A stretch of 64,000 nt of DNA from Salipiger sp. IMCC34102. Lineage in GTDB: Bacteria; Pseudomonadota; Alphaproteobacteria; Rhodobacterales; Rhodobacteraceae. The translations under genes and the position numbers were made by a program. The DNA is taken from assembly GCF_004145405.1 (NCBI RefSeq), contig NZ_SELQ01000009.1, positions 1 to 64,000 on the forward strand, given 5' to 3'. Below are positions 1 to 14,712 of this stretch, piece by piece. Below the pieces are notes generated by a model. It worked only from the letters and a program-made list of their open reading frames with translations. It was not told the DNA's origin and did no database searches. How positions within the stretch are numbered: position 1 is the stretch's first letter; every line of letters starts with the position of its first letter.

Positions 1-1
1 G

Positions 2-424
2 ATCGAGCGCCGCGGCAAGCCCGGCATGATTGTCAGCGATAATGGGACGGAGCTGACCAGTAACGCGATCCTGCGGTGGTGTTCCGAGCACCGGGTCGAA
101 TGGCACTACATCGCGCCGGGCAAGCCGGTGCAGAACGGTTTCGTCGAAAGCTTCAACGGCCGGATGCGCGACGAGCTGCTCAACGAGACCATGTTCCGCA
201 ATCTGGCCCATGCGCGGATCGTGATCGCAGCCTGGGCTACGGACTACAACACCGAGCGCCCCCATTCGGCCTTGGATTACCAGACCCCGGCTGCCTACGC
301 GCGGACCCTGACCACCGCAATCGCCCGCCCCGCTGCGCGAGATGAAAGCTCCGCGCGCCGGGCGATTGCTCAACCTGCGCCAACCGGCGTAAACACTAAC
401 CGGGCTCCGGTCGTGGCTGGATGA
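2..424 (+). CDS. IS3-family transposase OrfB, C-terminal part (cut by window start)
   Basis: The reading frame is already open at the window edge, so only the C-terminal part of the transposase is visible. It shows the end of the DDE integrase core: an SDNGTE block with the second catalytic Asp, and about 35 residues later the [12 protein letters not shown] block with the catalytic Glu. The tail has the usual integrase ending ([19 protein letters not shown]). IS3-family OrfB catalyses copy-out/paste-in transposition, normally as a frameshifted OrfAB fusion. The stop lies inside the inferred terminal repeat at 418-442, which is normal for these elements. The catalytic blocks look intact, but the first Asp and OrfA lie outside the window, so activity cannot be judged. 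Confidence 0.9.
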
Positions 425-2708: not shown

Positions 2709-2893
2709 CAGGAGATCTCCCGCCTTTTTGCATTGGCCGGTCGTTCCGATCGCGTCGCCTGATGGGCTTGGCAGGTGCACCCGGGTCCCGGCTCAGGGTC
2801 GACGACGAGACGGGAATGTTGGTCGAAGATCGCGTCCACGCGGGTGCGGAGCAGCTTTCCGTGATCCGATCGCTTCTGAAGTGGGGTCTTCAT
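2708..2893 (-). CDS. Small ORF (61 aa) between two recombinases
   Basis: The frame begins with ATG overlapping the stop of the 697-aa recombinase by four bases (ATGA, 2890-2893) and ends with TGA overlapping the ATG of the 468-aa recombinase. This double coupling is the main evidence that it is translated. The product is basic (many Lys, Arg and His) with a CTC pair near the C terminus and no family I recognise. By position it could correspond to a small accessory protein such as TnpC of Tn554-like elements, but there is no sequence evidence for that. Confidence 0.5.
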   Translation of the reverse strand: MKTPLQKRSDHGKLLRTRVDAIFDQHSRLVVDPEPGPGCTCQAHQATRSERPANAKRREIS

Positions 2894-4983
2894 CCTCTGT
2901 TCCTTTTCTTCTTTGTTTTTTCGGGCTTCCGGGACTTCTGATCGGCGAGGTATTTGCTCCACCTGTCGAGGGCGAGGTCCTCGTCGATCTCGGCATAGTG
3001 CGCGAGCGTCGTCTCCAGTCGCTTGTGACCGAGCAGACGCTGGACATCGGGCAGCCGATCCGGGTCTTCCCTGAGCCAGAGCCAGCCAAGGAAATGCCGG
3101 TAGAGATGCGGGTTCATCTTGAACCCCACGATCCGTTTCGTGTGCCGGACGAGACGCTCGAGCAAGCCGGCATAGGGTTGCCCCGGTTCGCCCCCTTCCC
3201 CCTGTGACGGGAAAAGGAATGGATTTTCGTCGTCTCCTGCTCGCAGAGCCTTCGGCCGGACCTTCTCGACAAACAGCTTCAACCGGGCTGAAGCATGCTC
3301 ATCAAGCGGTATATGCAGGTCCGGATCGTCGCTGTCGCGCCCTTTCACCTGCACATTCGGAACGACGATACGTGCCGTATTTCCGATCCACGAAATCCAG
3401 GACATGCGGATGCCAGTGATGTTGGCCCGCCGTGGTGCCCGCGCCAGTAGAATGTCGCTGGCGATGGCGCACATGATGTCCCGGGCCTCTTCAGGTCCGA
3501 GCAGGTCCATCCTGGTCTTGCCGCGGCACTTCCGTTTCCGATTGTCGATGATCGAGTTGACCTCGTCGGTCAGGATGTCGCTCAGATCGATCAGCCGCTG
3601 CTGGCGATCACCGATGATCTGCCGCAGCCGTGCCTTGTTACGACGCGAGATGCCAGTCTCGCCGATCGCATGTTCGTTGATATGCCCGGCGATGGCATTC
3701 ACGTCGTCGGCGCTTCGACCGATGTAGTCCCGCGCCAGCTTCTTCAGCGTCTTCCCGACCGACTCGGCATAACTGCTGGGAAACTCGTCGTCGGAGTTTC
3801 CGGAACTCAGAACGTCGAGGACGCTCTCGATGACATCCGGATCAGTATATTCTGTCAGGTCCTCAATAAGATATCCTGTCGAGGCGTAGAGCGCCTTCGC
3901 TCCCGCGATCAGCTGGTAGCGCCGGTTTTCGAGAGTCCTCTCGCTCCATGTCTGTCCGGGCAGGAGGAAACCAGCCGACTGCCGCTCTTCCTCGGTGCGC
4001 TTTCGGCCCCCGTTCTTCTTTTTCAGAAGGGCTTTCTTCGGGTTCACCGGGAGCGTGGACTCGTCGGCGTCCAACTGCGCGAGGAACGCTTCTTCCGACA
4101 GCCCATCACGAGATGCCTCGCCCCTCAGCCACCGGCTGACAGGCCCGTCGAACTCGGAGAGCAACTCGGAAAAGACCGAGGCATCGACGCCATACTTGTT
4201 CCTCCCGTCCGGGAACGGGTGCTCCACCACGCTGAACCCATAGGAGCTGAAGTCTGCATCGGCCGCGAGGCGTGTGCAGAGCGCCGAGATGCGCTGCACG
4301 TGCTTCTTGCAAGTCGCCTCACCCTTCGGGCTGACCGCGAGCCGGTGCAGATAGTATTCGTGCAGGACCTCTGTGGAGATTTCACAAGGTGAAATTTTCC
4401 GCTGGTAGAGGAAATGGAAGAACGTCCCCGAGATCAGCTTCAGGTCATCTGGGCAATCGGACTCCGACAGCACATCGTGGATTTCGCGATAGATGCCAGC
4501 CACGTCCCGAATTCCGGACGGCCGGTTTCGACCGCCATGAGAGTGAATAGCCGCCAGGATGTCGGATTTGTAGGTGGCGAAGCTGTTTTCCGTAAGGTCG
4601 AGGGTTGCAGCCGACCAACTCGACAATTTCTCGATCGCGCGCCGGCGATCCACGATTTCGATCTCGGCCACCCAACCCGCGGCCTTCAGAAATGCCTTGA
4701 GACGGGAGATGAGCACACGGTTGCGGCTGTCGGATTTCTCATCCCCTGTCGGGCGGGCCAGGTCGCTCATCAGGCGCGAATAGGTCATCTGACCCGCCGG
4801 CATCGGCAAGTGGATACCCATAACCTCGCCGAGCGCATCGAGCGTTTTCCTGTCCGACCGGATGCCGGGGATCTCGAGAATATCCTGCACAGCCCGCGGG
4901 TTCAGACCCGCCTGCAGGGCGAGCGCTCGCTTGCTGCTCCCGGACGCCCCGAGATAATCCCGAATTTGATCTTGAACCGTCAT
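2890..4983 (-). CDS. Large tyrosine recombinase/integrase (697 aa) with N-terminal HTH
   Basis: A site-specific recombinase predicted to integrate or excise the island. Residues 1-60 look like an XRE-type helix-turn-helix (QAGLNPRAVQDILE). A long middle region precedes the C-terminal catalytic domain, which has Arg I in RAPRRANITGIR, then H626 and R629 (HLYRH), H653 (LGHKRLETT) and the nucleophile Tyr663 (AHYAE). All catalytic positions are present, so it should be active. It ends in a Lys/Arg-rich tail. The length is well above the roughly 300-400 aa of phage-type integrases and closer to the TnpB recombinase of Tn554. It is first in a coupled three-gene set, 27 bases downstream of the 85-aa HTH protein. 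Confidence 0.88.
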   Translation of the reverse strand: MTVQDQIRDYLGASGSSKRALALQAGLNPRAVQDILEIPGIRSDRKTLDALGEVMGIHLPMPAGQMTYSRLMSDLARPTGDEKSDSRNRVLISRLKAFLKAAGWVAEIEIVDRRRAIEKLSSWSAATLDLTENSFATYKSDILAAIHSHGGRNRPSGIRDVAGIYREIHDVLSESDCPDDLKLISGTFFHFLYQRKISPCEISTEVLHEYYLHRLAVSPKGEATCKKHVQRISALCTRLAADADFSSYGFSVVEHPFPDGRNKYGVDASVFSELLSEFDGPVSRWLRGEASRDGLSEEAFLAQLDADESTLPVNPKKALLKKKNGGRKRTEEERQSAGFLLPGQTWSERTLENRRYQLIAGAKALYASTGYLIEDLTEYTDPDVIESVLDVLSSGNSDDEFPSSYAESVGKTLKKLARDYIGRSADDVNAIAGHINEHAIGETGISRRNKARLRQIIGDRQQRLIDLSDILTDEVNSIIDNRKRKCRGKTRMDLLGPEEARDIMCAIASDILLARAPRRANITGIRMSWISWIGNTARIVVPNVQVKGRDSDDPDLHIPLDEHASARLKLFVEKVRPKALRAGDDENPFLFPSQGEGGEPGQPYAGLLERLVRHTKRIVGFKMNPHLYRHFLGWLWLREDPDRLPDVQRLLGHKRLETTLAHYAEIDEDLALDRWSKYLADQKSRKPEKTKKKRNRG

Positions 4984-5010
4984 GTCTTCACTCCCGTGCT
5001 TGGCTGGCGC

Positions 5011-5268
5011 TCACTCGAGATCGAGAGCCGCCCTCCGTACGGGGCGGATCCGATGCTCGAAGAGCGCCAGCCAATCGGGGTGCACGAGCCAGCTCTTGCC
5101 AGGCTTTGTCCCGTCCAGGAACACCCTGCCCCTTTCGGTCACGGTCCCTTTCACGATCCAGTCGCGGATCGTCCGAGGGTGTCGCCGCAGTTTCTTGGCG
5201 ACGTCTGCTGTTGTCAGGTATCCGGCGTGGTTTTCATCTTCGGTGGTCTGCGTTTTATCCTCGGACAT
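5011..5268 (-). CDS. Excisionase-like helix-turn-helix protein (MerR/HTH_17 type)
   Basis: An 85-aa protein whose core (YLTTADVAKKLRRHPRTIRDW followed by a wing-like GKSWLVHPDWL) matches the small winged-helix DNA-binding fold of excisionases and MerR-like proteins. The start at 5268 has AGGAG about 8 bases upstream. It lies 27 bases before the large recombinase and is probably co-transcribed with it. Its likely role is to direct recombination (excision) or to regulate the module by binding near the attachment site, by analogy with Xis proteins. Confidence 0.7.
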   Translation of the reverse strand: MSEDKTQTTEDENHAGYLTTADVAKKLRRHPRTIRDWIVKGTVTERGRVFLDGTKPGKSWLVHPDWLALFEHRIRPVRRAALDLE

Positions 5269-5385
5269 CTTGGTCTCCTCTTTGCTACAAGAGGGACCTA
5301 CGCCCCGGCGGGGCGGCTCCAAAACGCGGGCGCAATCTTTTTTGGAGGCTCGGCGAAAACCCGGCGATGAGCGGCGAACAGGGAT

Positions 5386-5429
5386 CTGCTAATTTTGCGA
5401 TTTCCGCCGCAGGTTAGCCCGATTAGCAG
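5386..5429. repeat. Inverted repeat upstream of the recombinase operon
   Basis: CTGCTAAT (5386-5393) and ATTAGCAG (5422-5429) form perfect 8-base arms separated by 28 bases, in the gap between vsr and the HTH gene. The position upstream of the minus-strand recombinase operon would suit an operator or an attachment/accessory binding site for the HTH protein. This is inference; no second copy was found. Confidence 0.35.
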
Positions 5430-5479
5430 CAATAACCATGCGTCGGTGCGTGCGCTTGGCGAGCACCGTTCAATGGCTT

Positions 5480-5920
5480 TCAACCGAACTCGCGATGCCG
5501 ACTGCCACTTCGAATGAAATCGATGACTTCTTCGATCAATGCTTGGTCCGCTTGCTTTCCGATTGCGCATTCCCAGACGATCGCAGTTCTCCAGCCCAAT
5601 TGGTGAAGCTCCTCCAGAGCACGAGCATCCCGAGCCACATTCGCGGAGAACTTCCCCCTCCAAAACTCCACATTGCTGGAAGGCATCGTGGCTTTGGGGC
5701 ATCCTGCATGTCTATGCCAGTAGCATCCATGTACCTGAACCGCGACATTCCACTTGCGGAGAACTATGTCCGGCGACCCCGGCAATGATCGAACGTTCAC
5801 ACGATAGCGATATCCGGCGGCATGGAGCGCCTTCCTGAGAAGCATCTCGGGCTTGGTGTTCTTGCCGCGGATGCCAGACATCATCCGCGAGCGCGTCTTC
5901 TTGTCGACGATGTCTGTCAT
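5480..5920 (-). CDS. vsr: Very short patch repair endonuclease Vsr
   Basis: A 146-aa nicking endonuclease that cuts 5' of the T in T:G mismatches arising by deamination of 5-methylcytosine. The sequence has the family's opening (DKKTRSRMMSGIRGKNTKPE), the catalytic Asp in LPGSPDIVL and the metal/zinc-site stretch VHGCYWHRHAGCP. Length is normal for the family. It is divergent from the C5 methyltransferase at 6007, the usual partner, with an 86-base intergenic region that must hold both promoters. Pairing with a methyltransferase implies that the methylated cytosine sites in this genome are protected from mutation. Confidence 0.93.
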   Translation of the reverse strand: MTDIVDKKTRSRMMSGIRGKNTKPEMLLRKALHAAGYRYRVNVRSLPGSPDIVLRKWNVAVQVHGCYWHRHAGCPKATMPSSNVEFWRGKFSANVARDARALEELHQLGWRTAIVWECAIGKQADQALIEEVIDFIRSGSRHREFG

Positions 5921-6006
5921 GACAATGATTTGGCTCCAACTGGCAGATTTTCGACCTGGTTCCTGACGGCAAACCTAGTAGAACACCTCGAATCCGGAGG
6001 TGTGGT

Positions 6007-7500
6007 TTGGCGAAGGAATATGCAATCATCGACCTTTTTGCCGGGCCTGGCGGGCTGGGAGAAGGCTTTTCGCGCGCTGGCCAGGAAGCCGAGGCGAAAG
6101 CGCGCATCCACTTGTCGGTCGAGATGGAGCCCCATGCGGTCCAGACGTTGCGCCTTCGGTCGTTCCTTCGCAGTTTCGAGAATTTCCCTCGAGAGTATCA
6201 TGATGCGCTCAATGCGGGTCGTGGTCTGCCCGACTGGACAGAGCTGTATCCGTCAAACTGGCAGCAAGCCAACGCTGAGGTGAGACAACGGGTGCTCGGC
6301 CAAGAGGGCGTTTTCGAGGAGCTTGCCGTCGAGTTGGACAGAGCGCGCGAGATCCATCACGGCGATACGATCCTGATCGGAGGACCCCCATGCCAAGCCT
6401 ATTCCCTCGCCGGGCGTTCCAGAAACAAGGGCAAGCAGGGTTACGTGCCGGAAGATGATGACCGGCACTATCTCTATCGTGAATACGTGCGGATCCTGAA
6501 CCGCCTCGAACCAAGCGTGTTCATCATGGAGAACGTCAAGGGAATGCTGTCGTCCAGGGTCGATGGCGGCGGCATCTTCAGTCGCGTGCTCGATGATCTC
6601 GAAGCCGCCGGCGAACATGGGTATCGCCTTCTGCCTCTTGCAACGACGCCGCCTGCCGACGGTGAAAGAGCGGATGGCCGCGATTTCCTGATCCGGGCAG
6701 AGCAACATGGCGTCCCGCAGGCTCGGCATCGCGTGATCGTGCTTGGGATCCGCAATGACATTCCGATTCCCGCAATCGATGCTCCACTGCTCGGGGAACC
6801 CCAGCCCTCTGTCACTGTTTCGGAAGCGATCGATGACCTCTGGCGCCTTCGCAGCGGCCTGAGTCGCAAGGACAGCGCGTCGGCCTGGCACGAGGCTGTG
6901 CGCGAACAAGCCGAGCGGATCGCGCGCGACAAGGGCATAGAGCCTGATGTCCGCCACATCGCGCGTGATGTCGCAAAGGCAAACTCCCGGCCTGAGCTTC
7001 GGACAGCGCGCATGAGAGGTAACGGCGAATTCCTTCCGAACCACCTTCGCGACTGGCTACTGGACGACACGCTCGCCGTGTCGCTTCACCACGAGACCCG
7101 GGGGCACATCCCCGCGGACTTGGGCCGATATCTGTTCTCGGCGGCGTACTCCCGCGTCCATGACCAGGCGCCGAAGCTCTCGCAGTTTCCAGAATTTCTG
7201 CAGCCCGAGCATCGAAACCGCGGCTCGGGAGACTTCGCGGACCGCTTCCGGACCCAGGTCGCTACGCGTCCATCGACGACGGTGACGAGCCATATATCCA
7301 AGGACGGACACTATTTCATCCATCCTGACCCTAACCAATGCCGCTCTCTCACCGTGCGAGAGGCTGCTCGGCTTCAGACCTTTCCCGACAACTACTTCTT
7401 CTGCGGTCCGAGGACCATGCAGTATCATCAGGTTGGAAATGCGGTTCCCCCCTACCTTGCCTATCAGATCGCGAAGGCAGTCCTGCGGCTTGTCGGTTGA
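6007..7500 (+). CDS. dcm: DNA (cytosine-5-)-methyltransferase
   Basis: Transfers methyl groups from S-adenosylmethionine to C5 of cytosine in a short target. All main motifs are visible in order: motif I IDLFAGPGGLGEGF, motif IV GGPPCQAYSLAG with catalytic Cys129, motif VI MENVKGML with Glu175, motif VIII QARHRVIVLG, motif IX RPSTTVTSHI and motif X QVGNAVPPYLAYQI. The 497 aa include an enlarged target-recognition region. The start is TTG at 6007, preceded by GGAGG with good spacing. Vsr is divergent upstream, and the MORC/Z1 operon converges from downstream, leaving 27 bases. It is probably the modification arm of that system; the target sequence cannot be read from the protein. Confidence 0.94.
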   Translation: MAKEYAIIDLFAGPGGLGEGFSRAGQEAEAKARIHLSVEMEPHAVQTLRLRSFLRSFENFPREYHDALNAGRGLPDWTELYPSNWQQANAEVRQRVLGQEGVFEELAVELDRAREIHHGDTILIGGPPCQAYSLAGRSRNKGKQGYVPEDDDRHYLYREYVRILNRLEPSVFIMENVKGMLSSRVDGGGIFSRVLDDLEAAGEHGYRLLPLATTPPADGERADGRDFLIRAEQHGVPQARHRVIVLGIRNDIPIPAIDAPLLGEPQPSVTVSEAIDDLWRLRSGLSRKDSASAWHEAVREQAERIARDKGIEPDVRHIARDVAKANSRPELRTARMRGNGEFLPNHLRDWLLDDTLAVSLHHETRGHIPADLGRYLFSAAYSRVHDQAPKLSQFPEFLQPEHRNRGSGDFADRFRTQVATRPSTTVTSHISKDGHYFIHPDPNQCRSLTVREAARLQTFPDNYFFCGPRTMQYHQVGNAVPPYLAYQIAKAVLRLVG

Positions 7501-7527
7501 ACCCTCCGCTACGCTTTAGGTTGCGGC

Positions 7528-8325
7528 TCAGCTTTCCGCGGTTGCGAACGGGCGCGACGCGGGAAGGTCGTCCGTGACGCCTGCCACGCGAAAGAAGATC
7601 TTCTCGATCTCCCGTGTCAGGACCGACTGCTCCAACTCCCCGAGATCGATGATCTCGTTGCGCAGCCTGACCATCTTCGTGGCGGCACGCATCACTTCCT
7701 CCATGCGCCCGCGGCCGATACGCCCGGATGTCACCATCCAGGCGGACGCAATGGCCCGGGCCAGCTTGCGGTCCCCTGCAAGTGATGCGCGCTCGAAGAT
7801 CTGAACCATCGCGTCTTCACTCAGGGCGTGCACCAACTGCCACCTGTCGACCGAGCCGGGGCCGAGATCGAGGGTGACCCCACGGATCCAGAGTCTCTGG
7901 AACGCATTGCGCACGCCGCCCCGAAAGCGCTCCAGATTGCGATCCGGGAACCGCCACGAGACGACATCGGCCAAAAGCGCCGACGACAGGAATGCCCAGA
8001 CGTCGTCCCTCAAGGCCTCGCCCGTCGAAAGGATGTCCTGATCGCCGAGCCAAGTGGTCACTTCCGCGTCGAATGCAGAGCGCGACTTCTGGTCCGAGCT
8101 TTCCGGAAACCCGTGCCTTTCCGCGATCTGCCTGATCTCCCGGGCGATATCGACAGCGGATTCGGCACTGACCGATCCCCCGCTGGGGGCGAACCAGAGG
8201 AAGGAGGAATGCTCGTCGAGGATGTCGAGCACTTCCTTCACGGTCGGCACCTCGCTCCCGACGTCGTCGATGATCTGCATCACGCCCAGCTCGTTCAGGC
8301 GAGGCAACAGCAGGACACGTGTCAT
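7528..8325 (-). CDS. Uncharacterised protein, last gene of the MORC/Z1 operon (DUF6339-like?)
   Basis: A 265-aa soluble protein, largely helical and acidic, beginning MTRVLLLPRLNELG. There is no signal peptide or membrane segment and no motif I can assign to an enzyme. It resembles, from memory, proteins labelled DUF6339 that occur beside Z1/PD-(D/E)XK genes, but this is tentative. The ATG overlaps the stop of the preceding gene by four bases (8322-8325), so it is translated as part of the operon. Fixed linkage to ATPase, helicase and nuclease genes suggests a structural or sensor subunit of the same defence complex. Confidence 0.65.
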   Translation of the reverse strand: MTRVLLLPRLNELGVMQIIDDVGSEVPTVKEVLDILDEHSSFLWFAPSGGSVSAESAVDIAREIRQIAERHGFPESSDQKSRSAFDAEVTTWLGDQDILSTGEALRDDVWAFLSSALLADVVSWRFPDRNLERFRGGVRNAFQRLWIRGVTLDLGPGSVDRWQLVHALSEDAMVQIFERASLAGDRKLARAIASAWMVTSGRIGRGRMEEVMRAATKMVRLRNEIIDLGELEQSVLTREIEKIFFRVAGVTDDLPASRPFATAES

Positions 8326-9233
8326 TCGCCTTCTCCGACCTGTGCAGCAGCCATGATTGTTGCGCGGAAACGTCCCGGAGCGCCGGCCATCTCCGCCCTG
8401 ATTTTGTTGAGGGATTGCCCGGGGAACGCCATGTCCAGCCAGTTCCTGACCTGATCCCCCACCGAGCCCTCGACACAGTCAGCGAGCGCCTCGTCGCAAT
8501 CGGGCATGGCGACAACGTTCTCGATCATCTGGGACATCACATCCCCCAGCACCGCCTGGACCGTCGCCGGATCACCCGCGACGAAGCGCTCGCAGAGTTC
8601 GGTGTTGTCGGCGTTCACGTAGACCCGCACGGCACCGCCGAAGTCGGCGTCAAGCAAGCCGCTGCGCCAATGCACATACCAAGGTGCCGAGGCATGCGGC
8701 TGGCCGGTGAATGCCGACGCGAAACTGATGGTCTCGAGTGGGAAGCGTGCTGCTCCGCCATCCTCGAGCAGGATGTCCTTGCGGTCTGTCCAGAGTCTGG
8801 CGCCCGTCATTGCCGGCGAAAGCACACCGGGACTGACAGGCTCTGCATCCAGCACGATCCCTGCCTCCAGCAGAAGGCGCCCGGACAAGCGCGATCCCGT
8901 CACGACAGCACGGGCCTCGAATTCGGGGGCGGAAGGCACAAGCTTTCTCGTCTGGATTCGGTCCATTCTTCTGGGCATCTTCCCTGAGCCGGTTCCGGCT
9001 TTCAGGACAAGGGCCATCGAAAGCTGGTCGAGCGGAATGTCGAGCTGCGCCGCCGCCCGCTCGAAATCGATCTCGAAACCGACACTGACCTCCAGGTCCC
9101 GTTCATAATCCCAGCCTTCGAAGATATCGGTGGCCGGCACCAGCGGTTCACCCGGATCGCCGAGCCGCCACCCCATGAACCCCACTGAGGCCGGATCAAG
9201 ACGACTGAAGGGAAATGCAACACGCTGATTCAT
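8322..9233 (-). CDS. Uncharacterised protein, fourth gene of the MORC/Z1 operon
   Basis: A 303-aa protein beginning MNQRVAFPFSRLDPASVGFMGW that I cannot place in a named family. The N-terminal half is beta-rich and acidic, the C-terminal half helical. No catalytic signature, signal peptide or membrane segment is seen. It overlaps the MORC ATPase stop by four bases (ATGA at 9230-9233) and the next gene by four bases, so it is translationally coupled on both sides. It is probably an obligatory partner of the ATPase; an adaptor or DNA-recognition role is a guess. Confidence 0.65.
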   Translation of the reverse strand: MNQRVAFPFSRLDPASVGFMGWRLGDPGEPLVPATDIFEGWDYERDLEVSVGFEIDFERAAAQLDIPLDQLSMALVLKAGTGSGKMPRRMDRIQTRKLVPSAPEFEARAVVTGSRLSGRLLLEAGIVLDAEPVSPGVLSPAMTGARLWTDRKDILLEDGGAARFPLETISFASAFTGQPHASAPWYVHWRSGLLDADFGGAVRVYVNADNTELCERFVAGDPATVQAVLGDVMSQMIENVVAMPDCDEALADCVEGSVGDQVRNWLDMAFPGQSLNKIRAEMAGAPGRFRATIMAAAQVGEGE

Positions 9234-11062
9234 GTGCCCGCCTCCTCAAGCGACAGCCGCAACCCGATGGCCGCCTCTTCGGGCACGGGCACCCTGCAGA
9301 CGACCCTGCCCGCCATGGTGCCGATTGCCATGCTCTCGCCCGGCTCCGTAGCGTCCGCGACGGTGAGGTCGAGGACCTGCCCGGTAAAGCCGACGTCCAC
9401 ATCATCCGGAGATGCGATACCCCCGTCCATGACCAGGTGCGGCACGGCCTTCAGGACAAGGTCTGTTGATCGTCCATCGTTCGACAGATCCGCTTCGAAG
9501 ACGGCGATCTTCCGCCCGGCATCGATTTCCAGATGTGAGAAGCGGGGCGAAGACACTCTTGTCCGTTTCGTCGTTCCACCTCCGCCGCCTCCGGTTCGGC
9601 GGCCGGGGCCCTTGGCCGATCCCCCCTCCAGCAACCGGCCCATGAGCGTCGCTGTGGCCGCGAGGGACTGTCCCTTTTCTTCCGACTGTCCTGAAGCGGA
9701 CAGCGGATTGGCGAAGGTGCGCGCGGCCTCGTTGATCCGCTTCAGTCCGACATTCACGAAGGTCTTCGAGCGTCCTTTGGGAAGGTTGTCAGGAATCCAG
9801 TCGTCGTGCGCCGGTGGTTCGGCGTCGGCGAATGCCGCTTCGACCTCGTCGTCATCCGAGCAGACGAAAACGCCCCCCCATTCGAACCGTGCATCCGAGA
9901 ACGCCTCGCCTTCGACATACTTGACGACCAGCTCGACCGGCCGCATCAGCGCGATGTGGCTGGCCTGTTTCGGGAACGGGCTATGGGCACGCAGTGCGGC
10001 CGGATTCCGATCGGAGCGCAACCCCTTGACCATGGCAATCCGGCCCAGATCCATGGCCGGACGCTGGCTGCGGACGATCTGGCCGCCACCTGACCTGATG
10101 TCCGAAAGCGCCCGGGCGAAATGATCGAGCGGCGGATAGTCTTCCGGATCGGGAACGTGGATATTCTGTCCCTCCACGTCGATGGACACCGAGAGCTTCC
10201 GATGACCCGGCGTGTCCCTGCACATCCTCGGCCAGAAATTCCAAAGGACGGTCTCGAGCAGATGCGGACCGACTGGGAGCCGCTCATCCTCTTCGTCTTC
10301 CTCATCGAGGCGGGGCGAGACGATCATGATCGTCGTCCCTGTCGCTTCGGCGCTTCGTTCGGGCAGACCGAGCAAGCCTGCCAGACGAATAGCCTCATCC
10401 CCTGAGAACGGCTCCACTCCGCTCGTACCGTCGAGACTTCCCCACCAGTGTCGCCCAGTAAATCGCTTCCGCACATCACCTTCGATCGCCGCGAAGGTTC
10501 CGCCAAGGCGGCATGCCATGAGCCTGCGAACCGGAAGGCCGTCGCAGGTCGTCTGGCTGTCGACGAGAATTGTCGAGTGGCGGCTCAACGCATAAAGCGA
10601 CGTCTTTCCGTAACCATATGTTCCACCGCCATGATGGGTGTCGCGGGCGGCGCCGACATTCCGCATGAAATTCACGAAATCCGGATCTTCCGGCCCATCT
10701 GCCACAAGGTCCGCTCGGGTTGGCCCCGAAAGCCCGCTTGTCCCGAAATCAGCGATCTCGAAGACTTCGAGGCTTTCTCCCATCAGCTCCTCCTGAAGAA
10801 GAGCAGCGTCGGCGTCCTTCGGAATTTCCGCGAACACGCGACCGCGGAGCGCAGCGAATTCCTCGCCCCGAAGAACCCGGCTTCGCAGCATAACCTTCGG
10901 TCCTTGGTCCGGCAGCGTGGCGTCCATCGAGTTCTGCAACGCTTCGCGGATAACCGTCTGCAGAAGGCCGAGCGCCGGCCGCCCGAGAAGGCGTCTGAAG
11001 CCCTCGCCGGTAATATTTCCCGTCGTGGCGAAAGGTTCGCTGTAGAGCTCCATCGACTTCAT
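9230..11062 (-). CDS. MORC/MutL-like GHKL ATPase of a predicted restriction system
   Basis: A 610-aa ATPase with the three GHKL boxes: N box REALQNSMDA (E40, N44), G1 box IADFGTSGLSG (D105) and G2 box GGGTYGYGKTS (145-155). Spacing fits the MORC/Hsp90/MutL superfamily, in which ATP binding dimerises the protein to clamp DNA. The C-terminal half has no family I recognise; a Gly-rich linker (TGGGGGGTTKR) lies at about 490-500. The gene is third of five in a coupled operon, overlapping its neighbours by four bases on each side. By analogy with MORC-linked restriction-modification systems predicted by comparative genomics, it is likely the clamp or motor controlling the nuclease. Confidence 0.85.
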   Translation of the reverse strand: MKSMELYSEPFATTGNITGEGFRRLLGRPALGLLQTVIREALQNSMDATLPDQGPKVMLRSRVLRGEEFAALRGRVFAEIPKDADAALLQEELMGESLEVFEIADFGTSGLSGPTRADLVADGPEDPDFVNFMRNVGAARDTHHGGGTYGYGKTSLYALSRHSTILVDSQTTCDGLPVRRLMACRLGGTFAAIEGDVRKRFTGRHWWGSLDGTSGVEPFSGDEAIRLAGLLGLPERSAEATGTTIMIVSPRLDEEDEEDERLPVGPHLLETVLWNFWPRMCRDTPGHRKLSVSIDVEGQNIHVPDPEDYPPLDHFARALSDIRSGGGQIVRSQRPAMDLGRIAMVKGLRSDRNPAALRAHSPFPKQASHIALMRPVELVVKYVEGEAFSDARFEWGGVFVCSDDDEVEAAFADAEPPAHDDWIPDNLPKGRSKTFVNVGLKRINEAARTFANPLSASGQSEEKGQSLAATATLMGRLLEGGSAKGPGRRTGGGGGGTTKRTRVSSPRFSHLEIDAGRKIAVFEADLSNDGRSTDLVLKAVPHLVMDGGIASPDDVDVGFTGQVLDLTVADATEPGESMAIGTMAGRVVCRVPVPEEAAIGLRLSLEEAGT

Positions 11063-12057
11063 TCCGCAAATCCTTTCAACACGCTTTCCATATCCTCGTG
11101 GGGAACAAGAAAGTCGCGAGCATGCGAAAGATCAATTTCATAGGAAAGCCTCGCGACACCTGCCGGCAAGACACCGGCCGAGAAATCACCGGGCGTCAGT
11201 CGCGGAAACCCCGGCTCTACGCGATAGATGTCCAAGCCTTCGAAAGAGAAACGCGTACGGTTCCACCTGTCGTCATCAGGCGCGTCGCACCCCAGCTTGC
11301 CCAGAGCCTCGGTCAGACGGTGGGAGTCGGCACCAGCCTCGATGATCGACTTGCACAGACCGGATACAGACAGGTTACCCTCCTCAGCCCTTTCCAGGCG
11401 AACGTGCGTCAGAAGAAGTGTGCCCCCCCCCGGCGGATCGAGCTGCAGTATCCCATTGATGCCCAGACGCCCGGCATCCGCACGTCCCGACGTCTTCACC
11501 TCCAGCGCACGGTCACCGCTCCGGAAGTCGTGTCGCTGGCCGAAGGGCCCGGTCCACGATGAAATGGCGCCAGGCTTCAGATCCACAATCCGTTTCAGGA
11601 TCAGCAACTCGCCGACCAACCCCATGACCTCTGCCGACGACGGATCCTTGCGGCCACGGCCCATCAGAAGTGCCCTGAAATCCGATATCGTTCCCGACAC
11701 GGCCTTGGCAGGCGCCTGCCCGTCGCGAAGTCTGATCAGGATTTCACCTGCCAGCTCCGCAAAGACGTTGTCGAGCTTTCGGTCGGAAACCATCACGTCG
11801 ATGAAGGACACAGAGCTTCCGTCCATAGTGAACGTGCTAACGTCGGCGAACAGGTTCGGCCCTGATCCCAGATCCTTCGGCGGTGATCTTCTGCCGAAAG
11901 GAACAAGCAAGCGCGGCTCGCCCTCCGGCCCCACGGCATACAGGGCCGGACCGTATCCCGTCTCGACGCGGCTGTTCAGGGTCGGCACCTCGAGCCGTCC
12001 GTCACCTCCACCGGTCGACCTCAAACGGCTCCAGAACTCCCGTGCGCCGTCAGGCAT
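11059..12057 (-). CDS. PD-(D/E)XK motif endonuclease (DUF4420 type)
   Basis: A 332-aa predicted nuclease. The start at 12057 (MPDGAREFW) is chosen because it overlaps the helicase stop by eight bases; the frame is open upstream only as a shadow of the helicase. The core shows an acidic helix Glu150 (MGLVGELLIL), Asp177 (QRHDFRSGD) and the E-x-K dyad Glu186-Lys188 (ALEVKTSG), the order and spacing of a PD-(D/E)XK site. It matches the DUF4420 family found with Z1 proteins. It is second in the operon and is the obvious cleavage subunit, cutting DNA that lacks the cognate methylation or bears another non-self mark. Confidence 0.8.
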   Translation of the reverse strand: MPDGAREFWSRLRSTGGGDGRLEVPTLNSRVETGYGPALYAVGPEGEPRLLVPFGRRSPPKDLGSGPNLFADVSTFTMDGSSVSFIDVMVSDRKLDNVFAELAGEILIRLRDGQAPAKAVSGTISDFRALLMGRGRKDPSSAEVMGLVGELLILKRIVDLKPGAISSWTGPFGQRHDFRSGDRALEVKTSGRADAGRLGINGILQLDPPGGGTLLLTHVRLERAEEGNLSVSGLCKSIIEAGADSHRLTEALGKLGCDAPDDDRWNRTRFSFEGLDIYRVEPGFPRLTPGDFSAGVLPAGVARLSYEIDLSHARDFLVPHEDMESVLKGFAE

Positions 12058-14674
12058 CCTGAGGCTCCCGTGGTTCGCCGATTTCCTCCAACTCGTCCTC
12101 TTCGAACTGATCCGCGGCCGGTGCATCCAGTTCCACAGCGAAGTAGCCGCCCGAGCGATCCTTCTGCCCCGGAAAGACGATACCGAACCCCATGACATCC
12201 TCGACTGCGTCGAGAGGAACACGCGTCTTCGTTGGCCCCTTTGGTGGAGATTTGCCATCGATCGGGTAAAGCAGCAGTAAGGGCACCTTGGGCCGAAGGG
12301 ATTTCAGGTTCGTCCAGTCTTCCTTTCCGTCGAATTCGGCTATGCGTTCGGGCTCTGCATCGACAAGAATGTCCCGTTTGGACATAAGCGCCTTGATGTC
12401 CGCATAGTGATCGGGCGACGCCTCCAGCCGCGAACGGCGTATCGTCCGGACCTGTCCAAGTTCACCGAGTTCCCGCGTTGAGCTCGTGTCGCTCCGCGGT
12501 TGCATGACGGCGACGTTCCAAGGTCCGAATGTCTCTCCCATCTCGTCAAGATATCCGAGAAGATGCGGCTTCTTCAGATCCATGTGCTCATTGCAGATGT
12601 CGGTTGCCACGATGAAGCTTCGGATCGCTTCGAAAGGCACCTGTCTGAAAAGCACGTGGCTCCCCTCGTCCGCTCTCGTCGCGGCCACCTCGGCGCACGC
12701 GTCGACGAGGTTTGCTGCAGCGCGCCAGTTGCCCCGCAGAATATCCGCTTTCCGGTGATCAAAGCGGATCGTCTGAACATGCTGGCCGTCGTAGCTCATG
12801 CTGGTCCGATGAACGTGTTTCATCTTTGCGGCCGACGTGATGGCCATGCCGGGAATCGACCGGACCTTAACGGCGAACTGCATCGGCGTCAGATTGCGGG
12901 TGTTGTATTCGGCGATGTCGTCCCTGATCTCCTCTTCAATTCGCGCCAAGGCCCGAAAATTCGCGATCAGGTCCGCAGTGGTCCACAGCCGCGGAAGGTC
13001 GTCGTAACCAGGCCGGTATCCGAACCAGCGCCCCATCTGGAGAAGCGTATCGTATTGCTTCGAGGTCCTCAGGAAATAGGACACTGTCAGACCCTCGAGA
13101 GTCAGGCCGCGCGCCAGGACCGTGCCTCCGACCACGATGCAAGTGACGGGACCGTTCTCGTAGTCGAGCCGCCGATCGCTTTTTCCGTTTTCGACCGGGA
13201 AGGTCAGCGCGGCCAGAACATCCGGCAGATAGTCACGGACGGTCTCGAGACTCTCCGGAATCCGGTCCGCGCCCGGAGGCGCCGTGCGCTCGACCTCGTC
13301 AAGGAAAAGCGCGTCGAACCGTGCGCCCGTCTCTCCGGAACCGGAAACGATGTCGGGGCCATGCGTTTCGATCCAGTTTCTGATCAGGTCGGACATGTAA
13401 TCGTGCTGGGCAACATACTGCGACGAGTGAACCAGCATCGACATGTGCTTGTCCTGATGCCCACGTGACCGCCGGATCGCGCAACTGGCGAGGAACCACA
13501 TGATCGCATTCTCGAGGCTTGCCGTCATGATCGGACGGAAGCTTTCCTTCTCGTCGTTTCTGGTTGGTCGGATCAGGTCCGGGTCTTCCTTGGCAAGCAG
13601 CCGCACCATGTCGCGACCGTCGTCTTCCTCTTCGGCCGAGTCGCTTCCGAATACTTCTGCCGCCCCGAAGTAACCGATCGGTTTCTCGAGCGCCGTGATA
13701 AAGTCGGCAGGATACAGATCATCCAGATCCTCCTGATTGAACGGGAACGGATCGATGAAAACATTCGCGAACGGTGTCGCGGTATACCCGACATACGAGA
13801 CTGCCGGTAGCTCGGCCAAGACTTGCCGGATCGCCTCGTTGATCCGGGTCATGTCGAAATCCCCCCTCGATGAATTGACGGATGCCTGATCGCATTCGTC
13901 ATCGATCAGCAGAACCTTTAGCTTGTCCATGACGATCTTCGGGGTCTTCCTGATCGTCTTACGTAGGGCACGGAGGCGGCTGACCTCTTTCTTCATCACG
14001 ATGAGCTGCGCATGACCCTCATGCGGCATCGTGAAGGCGCCGTTGGCAGGATGGCTGAAGTCACCATTTTCGTCGCTGGTGGTATACAGCTCCCACAGGT
14101 GCCTGTGCCTTCCGACAACGTCCTTGGCAAAGCGATCCTGGGTCTGCTTCCTGAGCTTGTTCGTCACGCCGCCCAGTACGATGATCAGGTTGTAGCCAGC
14201 ATCGACGGCCTTCGCTATCACGGCCGTCATGTTGGCCGTCTTTCCGGATTGGACATAGCCAACGACAAGCCCACGGCATCGAAACTGATCCTTCGCGGGG
14301 TTGTCGAGGAGTGAAACCACTTCATTGGACGCTTCATCCAGCGACCGGATCGTCTCTTCGGCCCAGCCTTTCGTGTTCAGAAGATAGGCGTGAAGTGCAG
14401 GCCAATGACGATCGTTGCCTCGAGGACCGTCATACCACTTTTCCCGATCCGCGATTATGGAGTTCTTCCGGAGGATCACGACATCCTGCTCCGTTGCTCG
14501 CACCCGCTGCACTGCCTCATCGAGGTCCGAGATCATTTGCTCGGTGAAACTCATGCCCCAGCTCTCGAGGTTCTCTCTCACTGCCGCTGCAACCTGTTCC
14601 AAGTTGTCGTAGTTCGACTTGCGGTCTCGAATTTCCTTTTCGAACTTGAGAACCTGTGGTGACGCGTTTGTCAT
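12050..14674 (-). CDS. Z1-domain SF2 helicase/translocase
   Basis: An 874-aa superfamily 2 ATPase and first gene of the minus-strand operon. Walker A is GYVQSGKT (139-146), Walker B LLIDDECD (258-262 for DDECD), motif III is SYVGYTATPF, and an arginine-finger motif QMGRWFGYR follows GGTVLARGLTLEG, so the helicase core is complete. The DDECD and QMGRWFGYR variants are typical of the Z1 family. It should translocate on or remodel DNA and feed the PD-(D/E)XK nuclease encoded next. Upstream are an A-rich leader and a small inverted repeat where a promoter is expected. Confidence 0.88.
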   Translation of the reverse strand: MTNASPQVLKFEKEIRDRKSNYDNLEQVAAAVRENLESWGMSFTEQMISDLDEAVQRVRATEQDVVILRKNSIIADREKWYDGPRGNDRHWPALHAYLLNTKGWAEETIRSLDEASNEVVSLLDNPAKDQFRCRGLVVGYVQSGKTANMTAVIAKAVDAGYNLIIVLGGVTNKLRKQTQDRFAKDVVGRHRHLWELYTTSDENGDFSHPANGAFTMPHEGHAQLIVMKKEVSRLRALRKTIRKTPKIVMDKLKVLLIDDECDQASVNSSRGDFDMTRINEAIRQVLAELPAVSYVGYTATPFANVFIDPFPFNQEDLDDLYPADFITALEKPIGYFGAAEVFGSDSAEEEDDGRDMVRLLAKEDPDLIRPTRNDEKESFRPIMTASLENAIMWFLASCAIRRSRGHQDKHMSMLVHSSQYVAQHDYMSDLIRNWIETHGPDIVSGSGETGARFDALFLDEVERTAPPGADRIPESLETVRDYLPDVLAALTFPVENGKSDRRLDYENGPVTCIVVGGTVLARGLTLEGLTVSYFLRTSKQYDTLLQMGRWFGYRPGYDDLPRLWTTADLIANFRALARIEEEIRDDIAEYNTRNLTPMQFAVKVRSIPGMAITSAAKMKHVHRTSMSYDGQHVQTIRFDHRKADILRGNWRAAANLVDACAEVAATRADEGSHVLFRQVPFEAIRSFIVATDICNEHMDLKKPHLLGYLDEMGETFGPWNVAVMQPRSDTSSTRELGELGQVRTIRRSRLEASPDHYADIKALMSKRDILVDAEPERIAEFDGKEDWTNLKSLRPKVPLLLLYPIDGKSPPKGPTKTRVPLDAVEDVMGFGIVFPGQKDRSGGYFAVELDAPAADQFEEDELEEIGEPREPQDA

Positions 14675-14712
14675 GATACTGCCCTTCTCAAATCTTTTTT
14701 TAATTACTTCTG

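What the first reader, a model, noticed from the sequence alone, without database searches (positions are those of the whole stretch)
5480..14674. Compact MORC/Z1/PD-(D/E)XK cassette with Dcm and Vsr
Seen: five minus-strand genes (Z1 helicase, PD-(D/E)XK nuclease, MORC-like GHKL ATPase, two unknowns) with all four junctions overlapping by 4 or 8 bases, converging on a C5 methyltransferase that is divergent from vsr. Known: MORC/MutL-like ATPases with Z1 helicases were proposed as restriction-modification components from comparative genomics (Iyer, Abhiman and Aravind, 2008, as I recall). Inferred: a methylation-guarded, ATP-clamped nuclease system. The gene content is complete and every catalytic motif is intact, so it should be functional.
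Basis: partly seen in the sequence, partly recalled or inferred. Interest (0 to 1): 0.78.

Follow-up and report, generated by a model that had tools for sequence, protein, structure and literature searches.

The report
Methylation-guarded DNA-cutting defence gene cassette
A seven-gene block in a bacterium of the Paracoccus family looks like a mobile defence system that marks the cell's own DNA with methyl groups and attacks unmarked DNA; it is an apparently unnamed relative of a known anti-phage system, with two conserved proteins of unknown function.

Summary
Seven intact genes lie at 5480-14674. The five-gene core (Z1 helicase, DUF4420 nuclease, ATPase, two unknowns) keeps its order and strand in 80 of 87 rows (85 distinct loci, at least eight phyla). 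Dcm and Vsr usually lie beside it, on either side and in any orientation.

The ATPase is better called paraMORC2 than MORC: the MORC-defining motif is in 0 of 87 rows, the paraMORC2 ExxxH mark in 87 of 87. Its GHKL assignment rests on motifs and one weak profile match.

The closest named system is MZA. It shares Z1 and DUF4420 and, in one plasmid locus, also this Dcm-Vsr pair. MzaB and the AIPR protein MzaE are missing; paraMORC2 and the two unknowns stand instead.

On a tree of the core, parsimony needs at least seven exchanges between the usual Dcm and an E. coli-Dcm-type enzyme. This points to CCWGG as common self mark (inference).

Best reading: a mobile, methylation-guarded, ATP-driven restriction system, foreseen in outline by Iyer et al. 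2008. New variant of a known kind; function untested.

The parts
12050..14674 (-). Z1 helicase (SF2 motor, 874 aa); GYVQSGKT Walker A, DDE box, DTLLQMGRWFG Z1 motif
   Evidence: Pfam Z1 2.4e-69; PADLOC MzaC 1.1e-87; NCBIfam MzaC 366 bits against cut-off 1500; motif residues in 77 or 78 of 78 rows
11059..12057 (-). DUF4420 PD-(D/E)XK nuclease (332 aa), E150-D177-E186xK188
   Evidence: Pfam DUF4420 1.9e-43; E, D, E, K in 83 of 83 rows; NCBIfam MzaD 57 bits against cut-off 420
9230..11062 (-). paraMORC2-type ATPase (610 aa): N box E40/N44/D47, D105/G110, GGGTYGYGK, E415PPAH419
   Evidence: MORC motif 0 of 87, ExxxH 87 of 87; PADLOC PDC-M33A in 44 of 44 members scanned; N box aligned to a GHKL set, P 4e-4
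8322..9233 (-). g4, 303 aa, no Pfam, NCBIfam or PADLOC family; predicted beta sandwich plus helical C-terminal part
   Evidence: no family shared by more than 2 of 58 members; model pLDDT 91.5, pTM 0.65; weak RhoGDI/Wzt-type sandwich matches
7528..8325 (-). g5, 265 aa, DUF6339-related, predicted all-helical; W110, R125, G136, N140, R148, D171, R179 and R213 in 84 of 84 rows
   Evidence: DUF6339 in 31 of 61 members at E<=0.01; conservation; model pLDDT 92.4, pTM 0.88; no PDB or viral fold match at E<=0.001
6007..7500 (+). C5-cytosine methyltransferase (497 aa), the usual Dcm of this system
   Evidence: Pfam 1.5e-48; best PADLOC model DrmMII 1.5e-86; E. coli-Dcm subfamily only 65 bits against cut-off 710
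5480..5920 (-). Vsr mismatch endonuclease (146 aa)
   Evidence: NCBIfam vsr 131 bits against cut-off 97.85; PDB chain 1cw0_A, a DNA mismatch endonuclease, 2.7e-29
5011..5268 (-). small HTH/excisionase-like protein beside the cassette (mobility, not core)
   Evidence: HTH_17 6.7e-06, 26.7 bits against cut-off 27; excise domain 0.0076, below cut-off
2890..4983 (-). tyrosine recombinase (697 aa), likely mobility gene
   Evidence: Phage_integrase 1.7e-08; homology to L027 ends at 4878 inside this gene, 126 bases before the L027 contig ends

Best explanation
The cassette is a mobile, methylation-guarded restriction system. Dcm methylates cytosines of the host at one fixed site, most likely CCWGG. 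Vsr repairs the T:G mismatches that arise when methylcytosine deaminates. The Z1 helicase, DUF4420 nuclease, paraMORC2 ATPase, g4 and g5 form one complex. It engages DNA that lacks the mark; the Z1 motor moves along it using ATP, the ATPase closes as a clamp or switch, and the PD-(D/E)XK nuclease cuts. g4 and g5 probably recognise the site or hold the complex together. Shown here: gene content, conserved order, conserved catalytic residues, purifying selection, homology that ends at the block's Z1 edge in two relatives, repeated exchange of the methylase with an E. coli-Dcm type, and Vsr beside both Dcm types. Inferred: the complex, the CCWGG target, the clamp, the cutting, and the roles of g4 and g5.
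For: Core order kept in 80 of 87 rows. The usual Dcm lies within 1.1 kb of the core in all 56 tree rows of that class, in four side/orientation combinations (25, 18, 10, 3). Mobility: homology to L027 and L028 stops 14 and 26 bases before the Z1 start. Methylase exchange: 8 changes between the usual and the E. coli-Dcm class on the core tree, 7 without L012. In the closest exchanged pair, L060 and L063, the five core proteins are 70-84% identical while the Dcms differ in class (28% over 141 aa). The Dcms of L063 and L038 pass the E. coli-Dcm subfamily cut-off, 751 and 773 bits against 710. Background: 13 places at 230 bits or more, against 82 of 150 genomes with any C5 methylase. Vsr: 53 of 56 usual, 7 of 9 Dcm-type (6 of 8 without L012), 0 of 4 other methylases. 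Precedents: CglI and NgoAVII, whose N-proteins carry a Z1 domain, need ATP hydrolysis for cleavage by a partner nuclease, and little or no hydrolysis was seen with methylated sites for CglI (passages of PMC4267653); a Shedu nuclease with a GHKL domain protects against phage (passages of PMC12137116). An MZA-type locus carries the same Dcm-Vsr pair, 49% and 50% identical.
Against: No activity was tested. No sequence-recognition domain was identified in the core. Three rows (L012, L013, L094) have no DUF4420 between Z1 and the ATPase. L041 lacks g5 and most of Dcm although 9 kb follow, with Vsr kept. Ten of 87 rows have no Dcm found; only L101 of these has more than 6 kb on both sides. Four rows have other methylases without Vsr at 100 bits, so the mark is not CCWGG everywhere. 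CCWGG is inferred from class, not measured; the window's own Dcm is far from the E. coli-Dcm model. GHKL is weak by profile: no Pfam hit for P0005, 1 of 44 members at E 0.041; MutL comparison 7.6%, MzaB-type comparison 0.25%. The tree was built by the quick method, with long branches and 13 open forks.
Confidence: 0.64

Rival explanations
1. DISARM-like or BREX-like mode: the core senses DNA structure or replication state rather than one site, and methylation only damps it. Cleavage at a fixed site is not the mechanism, and the nuclease may be auxiliary.
For: The best PADLOC model for the Dcm is DrmMII. DISARM is described as repressed by methylation rather than triggered by a site, with a non-essential nuclease (passages of PMC9142583). 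No recognition domain was found in the core, and DUF4420 is missing in 3 of 87 rows.
Against: If any methylase would do, exchanges should draw on many classes; parsimony counts 7 changes between the usual and the E. coli-Dcm class and 10 with the other methylases added (without L012). Related Z1 systems with biochemistry (CglI, NgoAVII) are site-specific.
Confidence: 0.2
2. Abortive-infection system: the core is held off by host methylation and, when released, damages the cell's own DNA to stop phage spread.
For: MZA-type relatives carry an AIPR protein, a family named after abortive infection. Two unknown proteins leave room for an effector.
Against: AIPR queries found a relative in only 1 of the 87 rows, and not in the window. 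g4 and g5 match no toxin family. The GHKL Shedu protein was read as restricting the phage while the host stays viable (passages).
Confidence: 0.1
3. A repair or chromosome-handling function (a Vsr/MutL-like mismatch pathway) rather than defence.
For: Vsr is the partner of Dcm in repair; Iyer et al. mention possible recruitment to mismatch repair.
Against: Sporadic occurrence (4 of 292 genomes of the order with a near full-length ATPase match; 3 of 398 in the phylum) and homology limited to the block fit mobile defence better than house-keeping.
Confidence: 0.05

Closest known systems
MORC/paraMORC restriction operons with the Z1-type helicase (third type of Iyer, Abhiman and Aravind 2008, PMC2292703)
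   Same: Z1 helicase motif, E-D-ExK nuclease, GHKL-type ATPase, cytosine methylase and Vsr in one neighbourhood. The ATPase bears the ExxxH mark that the paper gives for paraMORC2.
   Different: The text I read (parts 1-3 of 4; figures are not held) does not discuss proteins like g4 and g5, their constant order, or methylase exchange; but the legend of its Figure 2 names uncharacterised domains Z2, Z3 and X1-X3, which may include them. It places paraMORC2 mainly in cyanobacteria and Gram-positives; most loci here are Pseudomonadota.
MZA anti-phage system (MzaA-E; Gao et al. 2020, recalled, not read; models in PADLOC and NCBIfam)
   Same: Homologous Z1 (32% to L163) and DUF4420 (29%) proteins, and in L163 the same Dcm-Vsr pair at 49% and 50%.
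   Different: No MzaB (MORC type by motif in the two loci tested) and no MzaE/AIPR; instead paraMORC2, g4 and g5. Order there is GHKL-Z1-DUF4420-AIPR, here Z1-DUF4420-paraMORC2-g4-g5.
CglI / NgoAVII ATP-dependent restriction systems
   Same: SF2 helicase with Z1 domain plus a separate nuclease and a methyltransferase (passages of PMC4267653).
   Different: Their nuclease is a PLD-B3 protein with its own recognition domain; the abstract lists three genes only, without a GHKL ATPase.
Corynebacterium diphtheriae BH8 island (PMC5379612, passages)
   Same: Z1 helicase, DUF4420 and Dcm-like methylase in one acquired island.
   Different: Has an EcoRII-like endonuclease; its three unclassified proteins were not compared with g4, g5 or the ATPase here.
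DISARM
   Same: The Dcm scores best with a DrmMII model; helicase, nuclease and methylase theme.
   Different: No Drm model other than DrmMII among the PADLOC hits shown for nine proteins (the Dcm list is cut at 25 of 56).
VcSduA, a Shedu nuclease with GHKL domain (such proteins were annotated paraMORC3)
   Same: GHKL ATPase with a PD-(D/E)XK nuclease; both activities needed against phage (passages of PMC12137116).
   Different: One fused protein with a DUF4263 nuclease domain; no Z1 helicase was mentioned in the passages seen.

Membership tests
Iyer 2008 Z1-type (third) restriction operon | SFII helicase with DThhQXuRhFG motif | tested here: met
   DTLLQMGRWFG in P0007; D542 78/78, T543 77/78, Q546-G552 78/78; Pfam Z1
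Iyer 2008 Z1-type (third) restriction operon | neighbouring RE-fold protein with E-D-ExK | tested here: met
   E150, D177, E186, K188 in 83 of 83 rows; 3 of 87 rows lack the gene
Iyer 2008 Z1-type (third) restriction operon | GHKL ATPase with S5 domain | tested here: inconclusive
   motifs in order and N box aligned to a GHKL set, P 4e-4, best of 20 shuffles 0.024; Pfam and two other profile comparisons negative; S5 not tested
Iyer 2008 Z1-type (third) restriction operon | cytosine methylase and Vsr nearby (frequent) | tested here: met
MORC family proper | GhXhhpXXRhl motif in the S5 domain | tested here: not met
   0 of 87 rows; the same pattern is found in 3 of 3 MORC-type controls, L108, L109 and L012
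paraMORC2 | conserved ExxxH in the C-terminal part of S5 | tested here: met
   EP..HD.W in 87 of 87 rows; that it lies in an S5 fold was not tested
MZA | MzaC and MzaD over curated cut-off | tested here: not met
   366 bits against 1500; 57 bits against 420
MZA | MzaB (GHKL) present | tested here: not met
   no MzaB match for P0005 at E<=0.01 or for 44 family members at E<=0.001; profile comparison 0.25%
MZA | MzaE (AIPR) present | tested here: not met
   AIPR queries hit 1 of 87 rows (L081), not the window
DISARM | DrmA helicase and DrmB DUF1998 | tested here: not met
   no Drm model but DrmMII among the hits shown
Type II restriction-modification | cognate sequence-specific endonuclease | tested here: inconclusive
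   no type II endonuclease model for the core proteins; specificity of the complex not testable here
CCWGG-specific methylase | methylates the inner C of CCWGG | not testable with these tools
   inferred from exchange with E. coli-Dcm-type enzymes and from Vsr

The most novel reading that the evidence does not exclude
This is a distinct, unnamed defence system with one fixed self mark. paraMORC2 with g4 and g5 (a beta-sandwich protein and a helical fold without match in the PDB) replaces the MORC and AIPR parts of MZA, and g4/g5 read CCWGG methylation in a new way. It follows that the 'orphan' Dcm-Vsr pair of E. coli K-12 would protect a cell against this and related systems, giving the orphan pair a place in the conflict between mobile restriction systems and their hosts.
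Probability: 0.35. Interest if true: 0.66.

Novelty: new variant of a known kind. Interest (0 to 1): 0.46.

Why it matters
The five-gene core is a clear case of a prokaryotic paraMORC tied to a helicase and a nuclease, the setting from which Iyer et al. derive the eukaryotic MORC chromatin ATPases. The methylase-exchange pattern gives a definite, cheap prediction (CCWGG; protection by E. coli Dcm). g4 and g5 are constant parts of the system without known function. My paper searches for DUF6339 (0 papers) and for PF10593, PF14390, PF19866, PDC-M33 and DUF4420 (2 papers, neither on this gene set in the passages seen) covered open-licence PMC papers only.

Tried and rejected
MORC proper: rejected by motif. 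MZA membership: rejected on cut-offs and missing genes. A core protein that changes together with the methylase (a specificity subunit): looked for in exchanged pairs. In L060/L063 all five core proteins are 70-84% identical; the lowest is the nuclease, but it is also the lowest core protein in a pair with the same Dcm class, L038/L055, 65%. No such subunit found.

Fold matches: g4 matches RhoGDI, Wzt and other sandwiches, TM at most about 0.5 by target and 0.29 by query; too general to name a function. g5: nothing at E<=0.001 in PDB or viral models. ATPase against PDB sequences: nothing as a single sequence, two chance-level rows (E 0.41 and 0.58) as a profile. Z1 single sequence against PDB: nothing; DUF4420: one row at E 0.037 to a V-type ATP synthase chain, taken as chance. 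Promoter and terminator scan: no excess over shuffles (2 against mean 2.0; 6 against mean 7.2). Insertion site: 9 of 9 genus genomes match, but the five best relatives only over 578-733 of the 1501 bases tested at 68-72% identity, in what I take by eye for an enoyl-CoA hydratase gene; no clean empty site was obtained. CCWGG methylation by DISARM was seen only as a passage of a review (PMC12926258); the Serratia DISARM motifs quoted in PMC9142583 differ. A search for this Dcm in plasmids at E<=1e-60 gave three records, all of which also appear among the Z1 hits.

Rows dropped or handled: of 87 rows, 74 with full-length Z1 and ATPase entered the tree; L013, L016, L017 and L100 were left out as near or exact copies (L100 without a check of its identity). 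L033 and L053 (partial or broken Dcm) were labelled by hand as the usual class. 5 tree rows without a Dcm had no label. Of the nine E. coli-Dcm-class rows, seven were scanned by NCBIfam; L052 and L055 were placed by BLAST. L012's Dcm lies 9.4 kb from the core beside an EcoRII-type nuclease, so counts are given with and without it. The search for related loci kept the best 80 of 317 relatives, found through the ATPase patterns GGTYG[YF]GK and [RCN][YF]TGRHWW, so conservation of those residues is partly by construction.
Full report
WHAT IS THERE. Five on the minus strand overlap by 8, 4, 4 and 4 bases: Z1 helicase, DUF4420 PD-(D/E)XK nuclease, an ATPase of 610 aa, g4 (303 aa) and g5 (265 aa). 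A C5 methylase (TTG start) converges on them and diverges from vsr. Vsr, Dcm, DUF4420 and Z1 pass their Pfam cut-offs; g5 matches DUF6339 weakly; g4 and the ATPase match nothing in Pfam or NCBIfam. PADLOC gives MzaC for Z1, MzaD for DUF4420, and PDC-M33A over residues 94-167 of the ATPase.

MORE THAN CHANCE. A search of GTDB species genomes with an alignment of the ATPase found 317 relatives; the best 80 were kept. With six loci from other searches and the window this makes 87 rows, of which L016/L033 and L017/L056 are the same stretches. The order Z1-DUF4420-ATPase-g4-g5 on one strand is found in 80 of 87. Three lack DUF4420 (L012, L013, L094). Of the other four, L051, L092 and L102 are cut by contig ends; L041 starts 1.2 kb before the ATPase and lacks g5 and most of Dcm further on, with Vsr kept. 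The tree labels name eight phyla: Pseudomonadota, Cyanobacteriota, Nitrospinota, Acidobacteriota, Planctomycetota, Chloroflexota, Rhodothermota and Verrucomicrobiota. In the window's order 10 of 292 genomes have any match, 4 of them (the window's own included) over nearly the full length; in the phylum 3 of 398 at E<=1e-40. dN/dS is 0.04-0.22 for each of the seven genes against L027 and L028.

MOBILITY. DNA homology to Paracoccus sp. R12_2 (L027, 94.8%) runs from 4878 to 14688, and to an uncultured Roseovarius (L028, 75%) from 5516 to 14700. On the Z1 side the ends are real: 6.4 kb and 1.0 kb of L027 and L028 beyond them do not align. On the vsr side the two contigs run out 126 and 485 bases later, so that edge is not fixed. 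A tyrosine recombinase (2890-4983) and an HTH/excisionase-like gene (5011-5268) lie on that side.

WHAT THE ATPASE IS. Iyer et al. 2008 separate MORCs, by the S5 motif GhXhhpXXRhl, from paraMORC families; paraMORC2 has a strongly conserved ExxxH. The MORC motif is in 0 of 87 rows and E-P-x-x-H-D-x-W in 87 of 87. The same pattern search finds the MORC motif in three of three MORC-type controls. The GHKL assignment is weaker than the finding suggests. Only 1 of 44 members reaches HATPase_c_3, at E 0.041. hhalign against MutL gives 7.6% and against two MzaB-type proteins 0.25%. The N-terminal part aligned to 30 GHKL proteins gives 34.9% with the N box in register, P 0.0004; 20 column-shuffled controls reach at best 0.024, and MutL as positive control 99.9%. 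I take it as a remote GHKL ATPase.

RELATION TO MZA. A Sinorhizobium plasmid locus (L108) reads MzaB-MzaC-MzaD-MzaE by PADLOC models, with methylase and Vsr beside it. An Agrobacterium plasmid locus (L163) has vsr and dcm divergent, then ATP-binding protein, Z1, PD-(D/E)XK and AIPR by annotation. Its Dcm and Vsr are 49% and 50% identical to those of the window, its Z1 32% and its nuclease 29%. HMMs of the window's ATPase, g4 and g5 find nothing at E<=1e-3 in five Z1-DUF4420 loci (L107, L108, L109, L163, L164). AIPR queries hit only L081 among the 87 rows; MzaB queries hit a separate GHKL gene in L012 and L013 and a short stretch in L095. So the two systems share motor, nuclease and, in L163, self mark, but differ in ATPase and remaining parts.

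THE SELF MARK. On a tree of joined Z1 and ATPase rows (74 rows; quick method, several long branches, 13 open forks) three methylase classes were placed: the usual class (56), an E. coli-Dcm/EcoRII-like class (9) and others (4); 5 rows have none. The second class needs 8 changes, all forced by starred branches, about as scattered as shuffled labels (mean 8.7); without L012 the count between the two classes is 7. Two of the seven such enzymes scanned pass the curated cut-off of that subfamily and five score 239-426 bits, while three of the four 'other' methylases scanned score 19-62. In a phylum sample this class (at least 230 bits) has 13 places, against 82 of 150 genomes with any C5 methylase: a minority class, drawn on again and again here. 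Vsr accompanies 53 of 56, 7 of 9 and 0 of 4 rows of the three classes at 100 bits or more; L103 of the last has a 41-bit piece. The simplest reading is that both main classes make the same mark, CCWGG, and that the core needs it. That E. coli Dcm methylates CCWGG is established knowledge; that this Dcm does so is inference. No core protein was seen to change together with the methylase.

THE TWO UNKNOWNS. g4 is modelled well within domains (pLDDT 91.5, pTM 0.65): a beta sandwich and a helical C-terminal part; the best PDB matches are general sandwiches with low TM. g5 is a confident helical model (pLDDT 92.4, pTM 0.88) without match in PDB or viral models at E<=0.001. It has a set of conserved charged residues (R125, R148, D171, R179, R213; 84 of 84 rows), which would suit a DNA- or nucleotide-binding site. 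That is a guess.

HOW IT MOST LIKELY WORKS. CglI and NgoAVII show that a Z1-containing helicase can couple ATP hydrolysis on unmethylated sites to cutting by a partner nuclease, with Z1 used for dimerisation in CglI (passages). A Shedu nuclease with a GHKL domain shows that such an ATPase can be needed for a PD-(D/E)XK nuclease in phage defence (passages). By these analogies the present core restricts DNA that lacks the mark. The site reader is probably g4, g5 or a C-terminal part of Z1. The main alternative is DISARM-like, site-independent sensing damped by methylation.

LITERATURE. Seen: PMC2292703 (parts 1-3 of 4, no figures); passages of PMC5379612, PMC7251935, PMC8011034, PMC12137116, PMC9142583, PMC12926258 and PMC4267653. 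Gao et al. 2020 (MZA) and Ofir et al. 2018 (DISARM) are recalled, not read. Nine paper searches listed no experimental work on this seven-gene set among the rows shown; the library holds open-licence PMC papers only.

VERDICT. Observation confirmed; interpretation partly supported. New variant of a known kind, with a testable target prediction.

Noticed in passing
window 1-424 and 1302-2780: The left edge carries what looks by eye like the end of an IS3-type transposase and a second recombinase-like ORF of 492 aa; no family search was run on either.
   Followed up: no
L012 16529-24251 (and L013): Two Rhizobiaceae plasmids hold, beside the core without DUF4420, a DEAD helicase / EcoRII-N-domain / MORC-type GHKL / HNH operon (like Iyer's second type) and a type II endonuclease with Vsr and Dcm: a stack of related systems.
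   Followed up: partly
L103 17965-19986 and L105 11093-13057: Cyanobacterial loci carry a second ATPase with an EIPAH motif a few kb beyond the core, next to an unusually long Dcm (674 and 698 aa).
   Followed up: partly
L081 2-1645: The one row of 87 with an AIPR relative near the core, possibly a neighbouring or hybrid MZA-type locus.
   Followed up: no
L053 4191-11849: Dcm, Vsr, Z1 and ATPase of this Devosia MAG locus fall into several frames each; decay or assembly error.
   Followed up: no
L041 1219-4123: g5 and most of Dcm are missing between a shortened g4 and an intact Vsr, although the contig goes on; an internal deletion or assembly error.
   Followed up: no
G000:C8:9020-9928: The window's genome holds one further C5 methylase (228 bits, PF00145) outside the cassette.
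   Followed up: no
L018 and L019: Genomes of the same family have distant ATPases of this kind near Vsr and Dcm relatives, but none of the window's Z1, DUF4420, g4 or g5 was found there by BLAST.
   Followed up: partly
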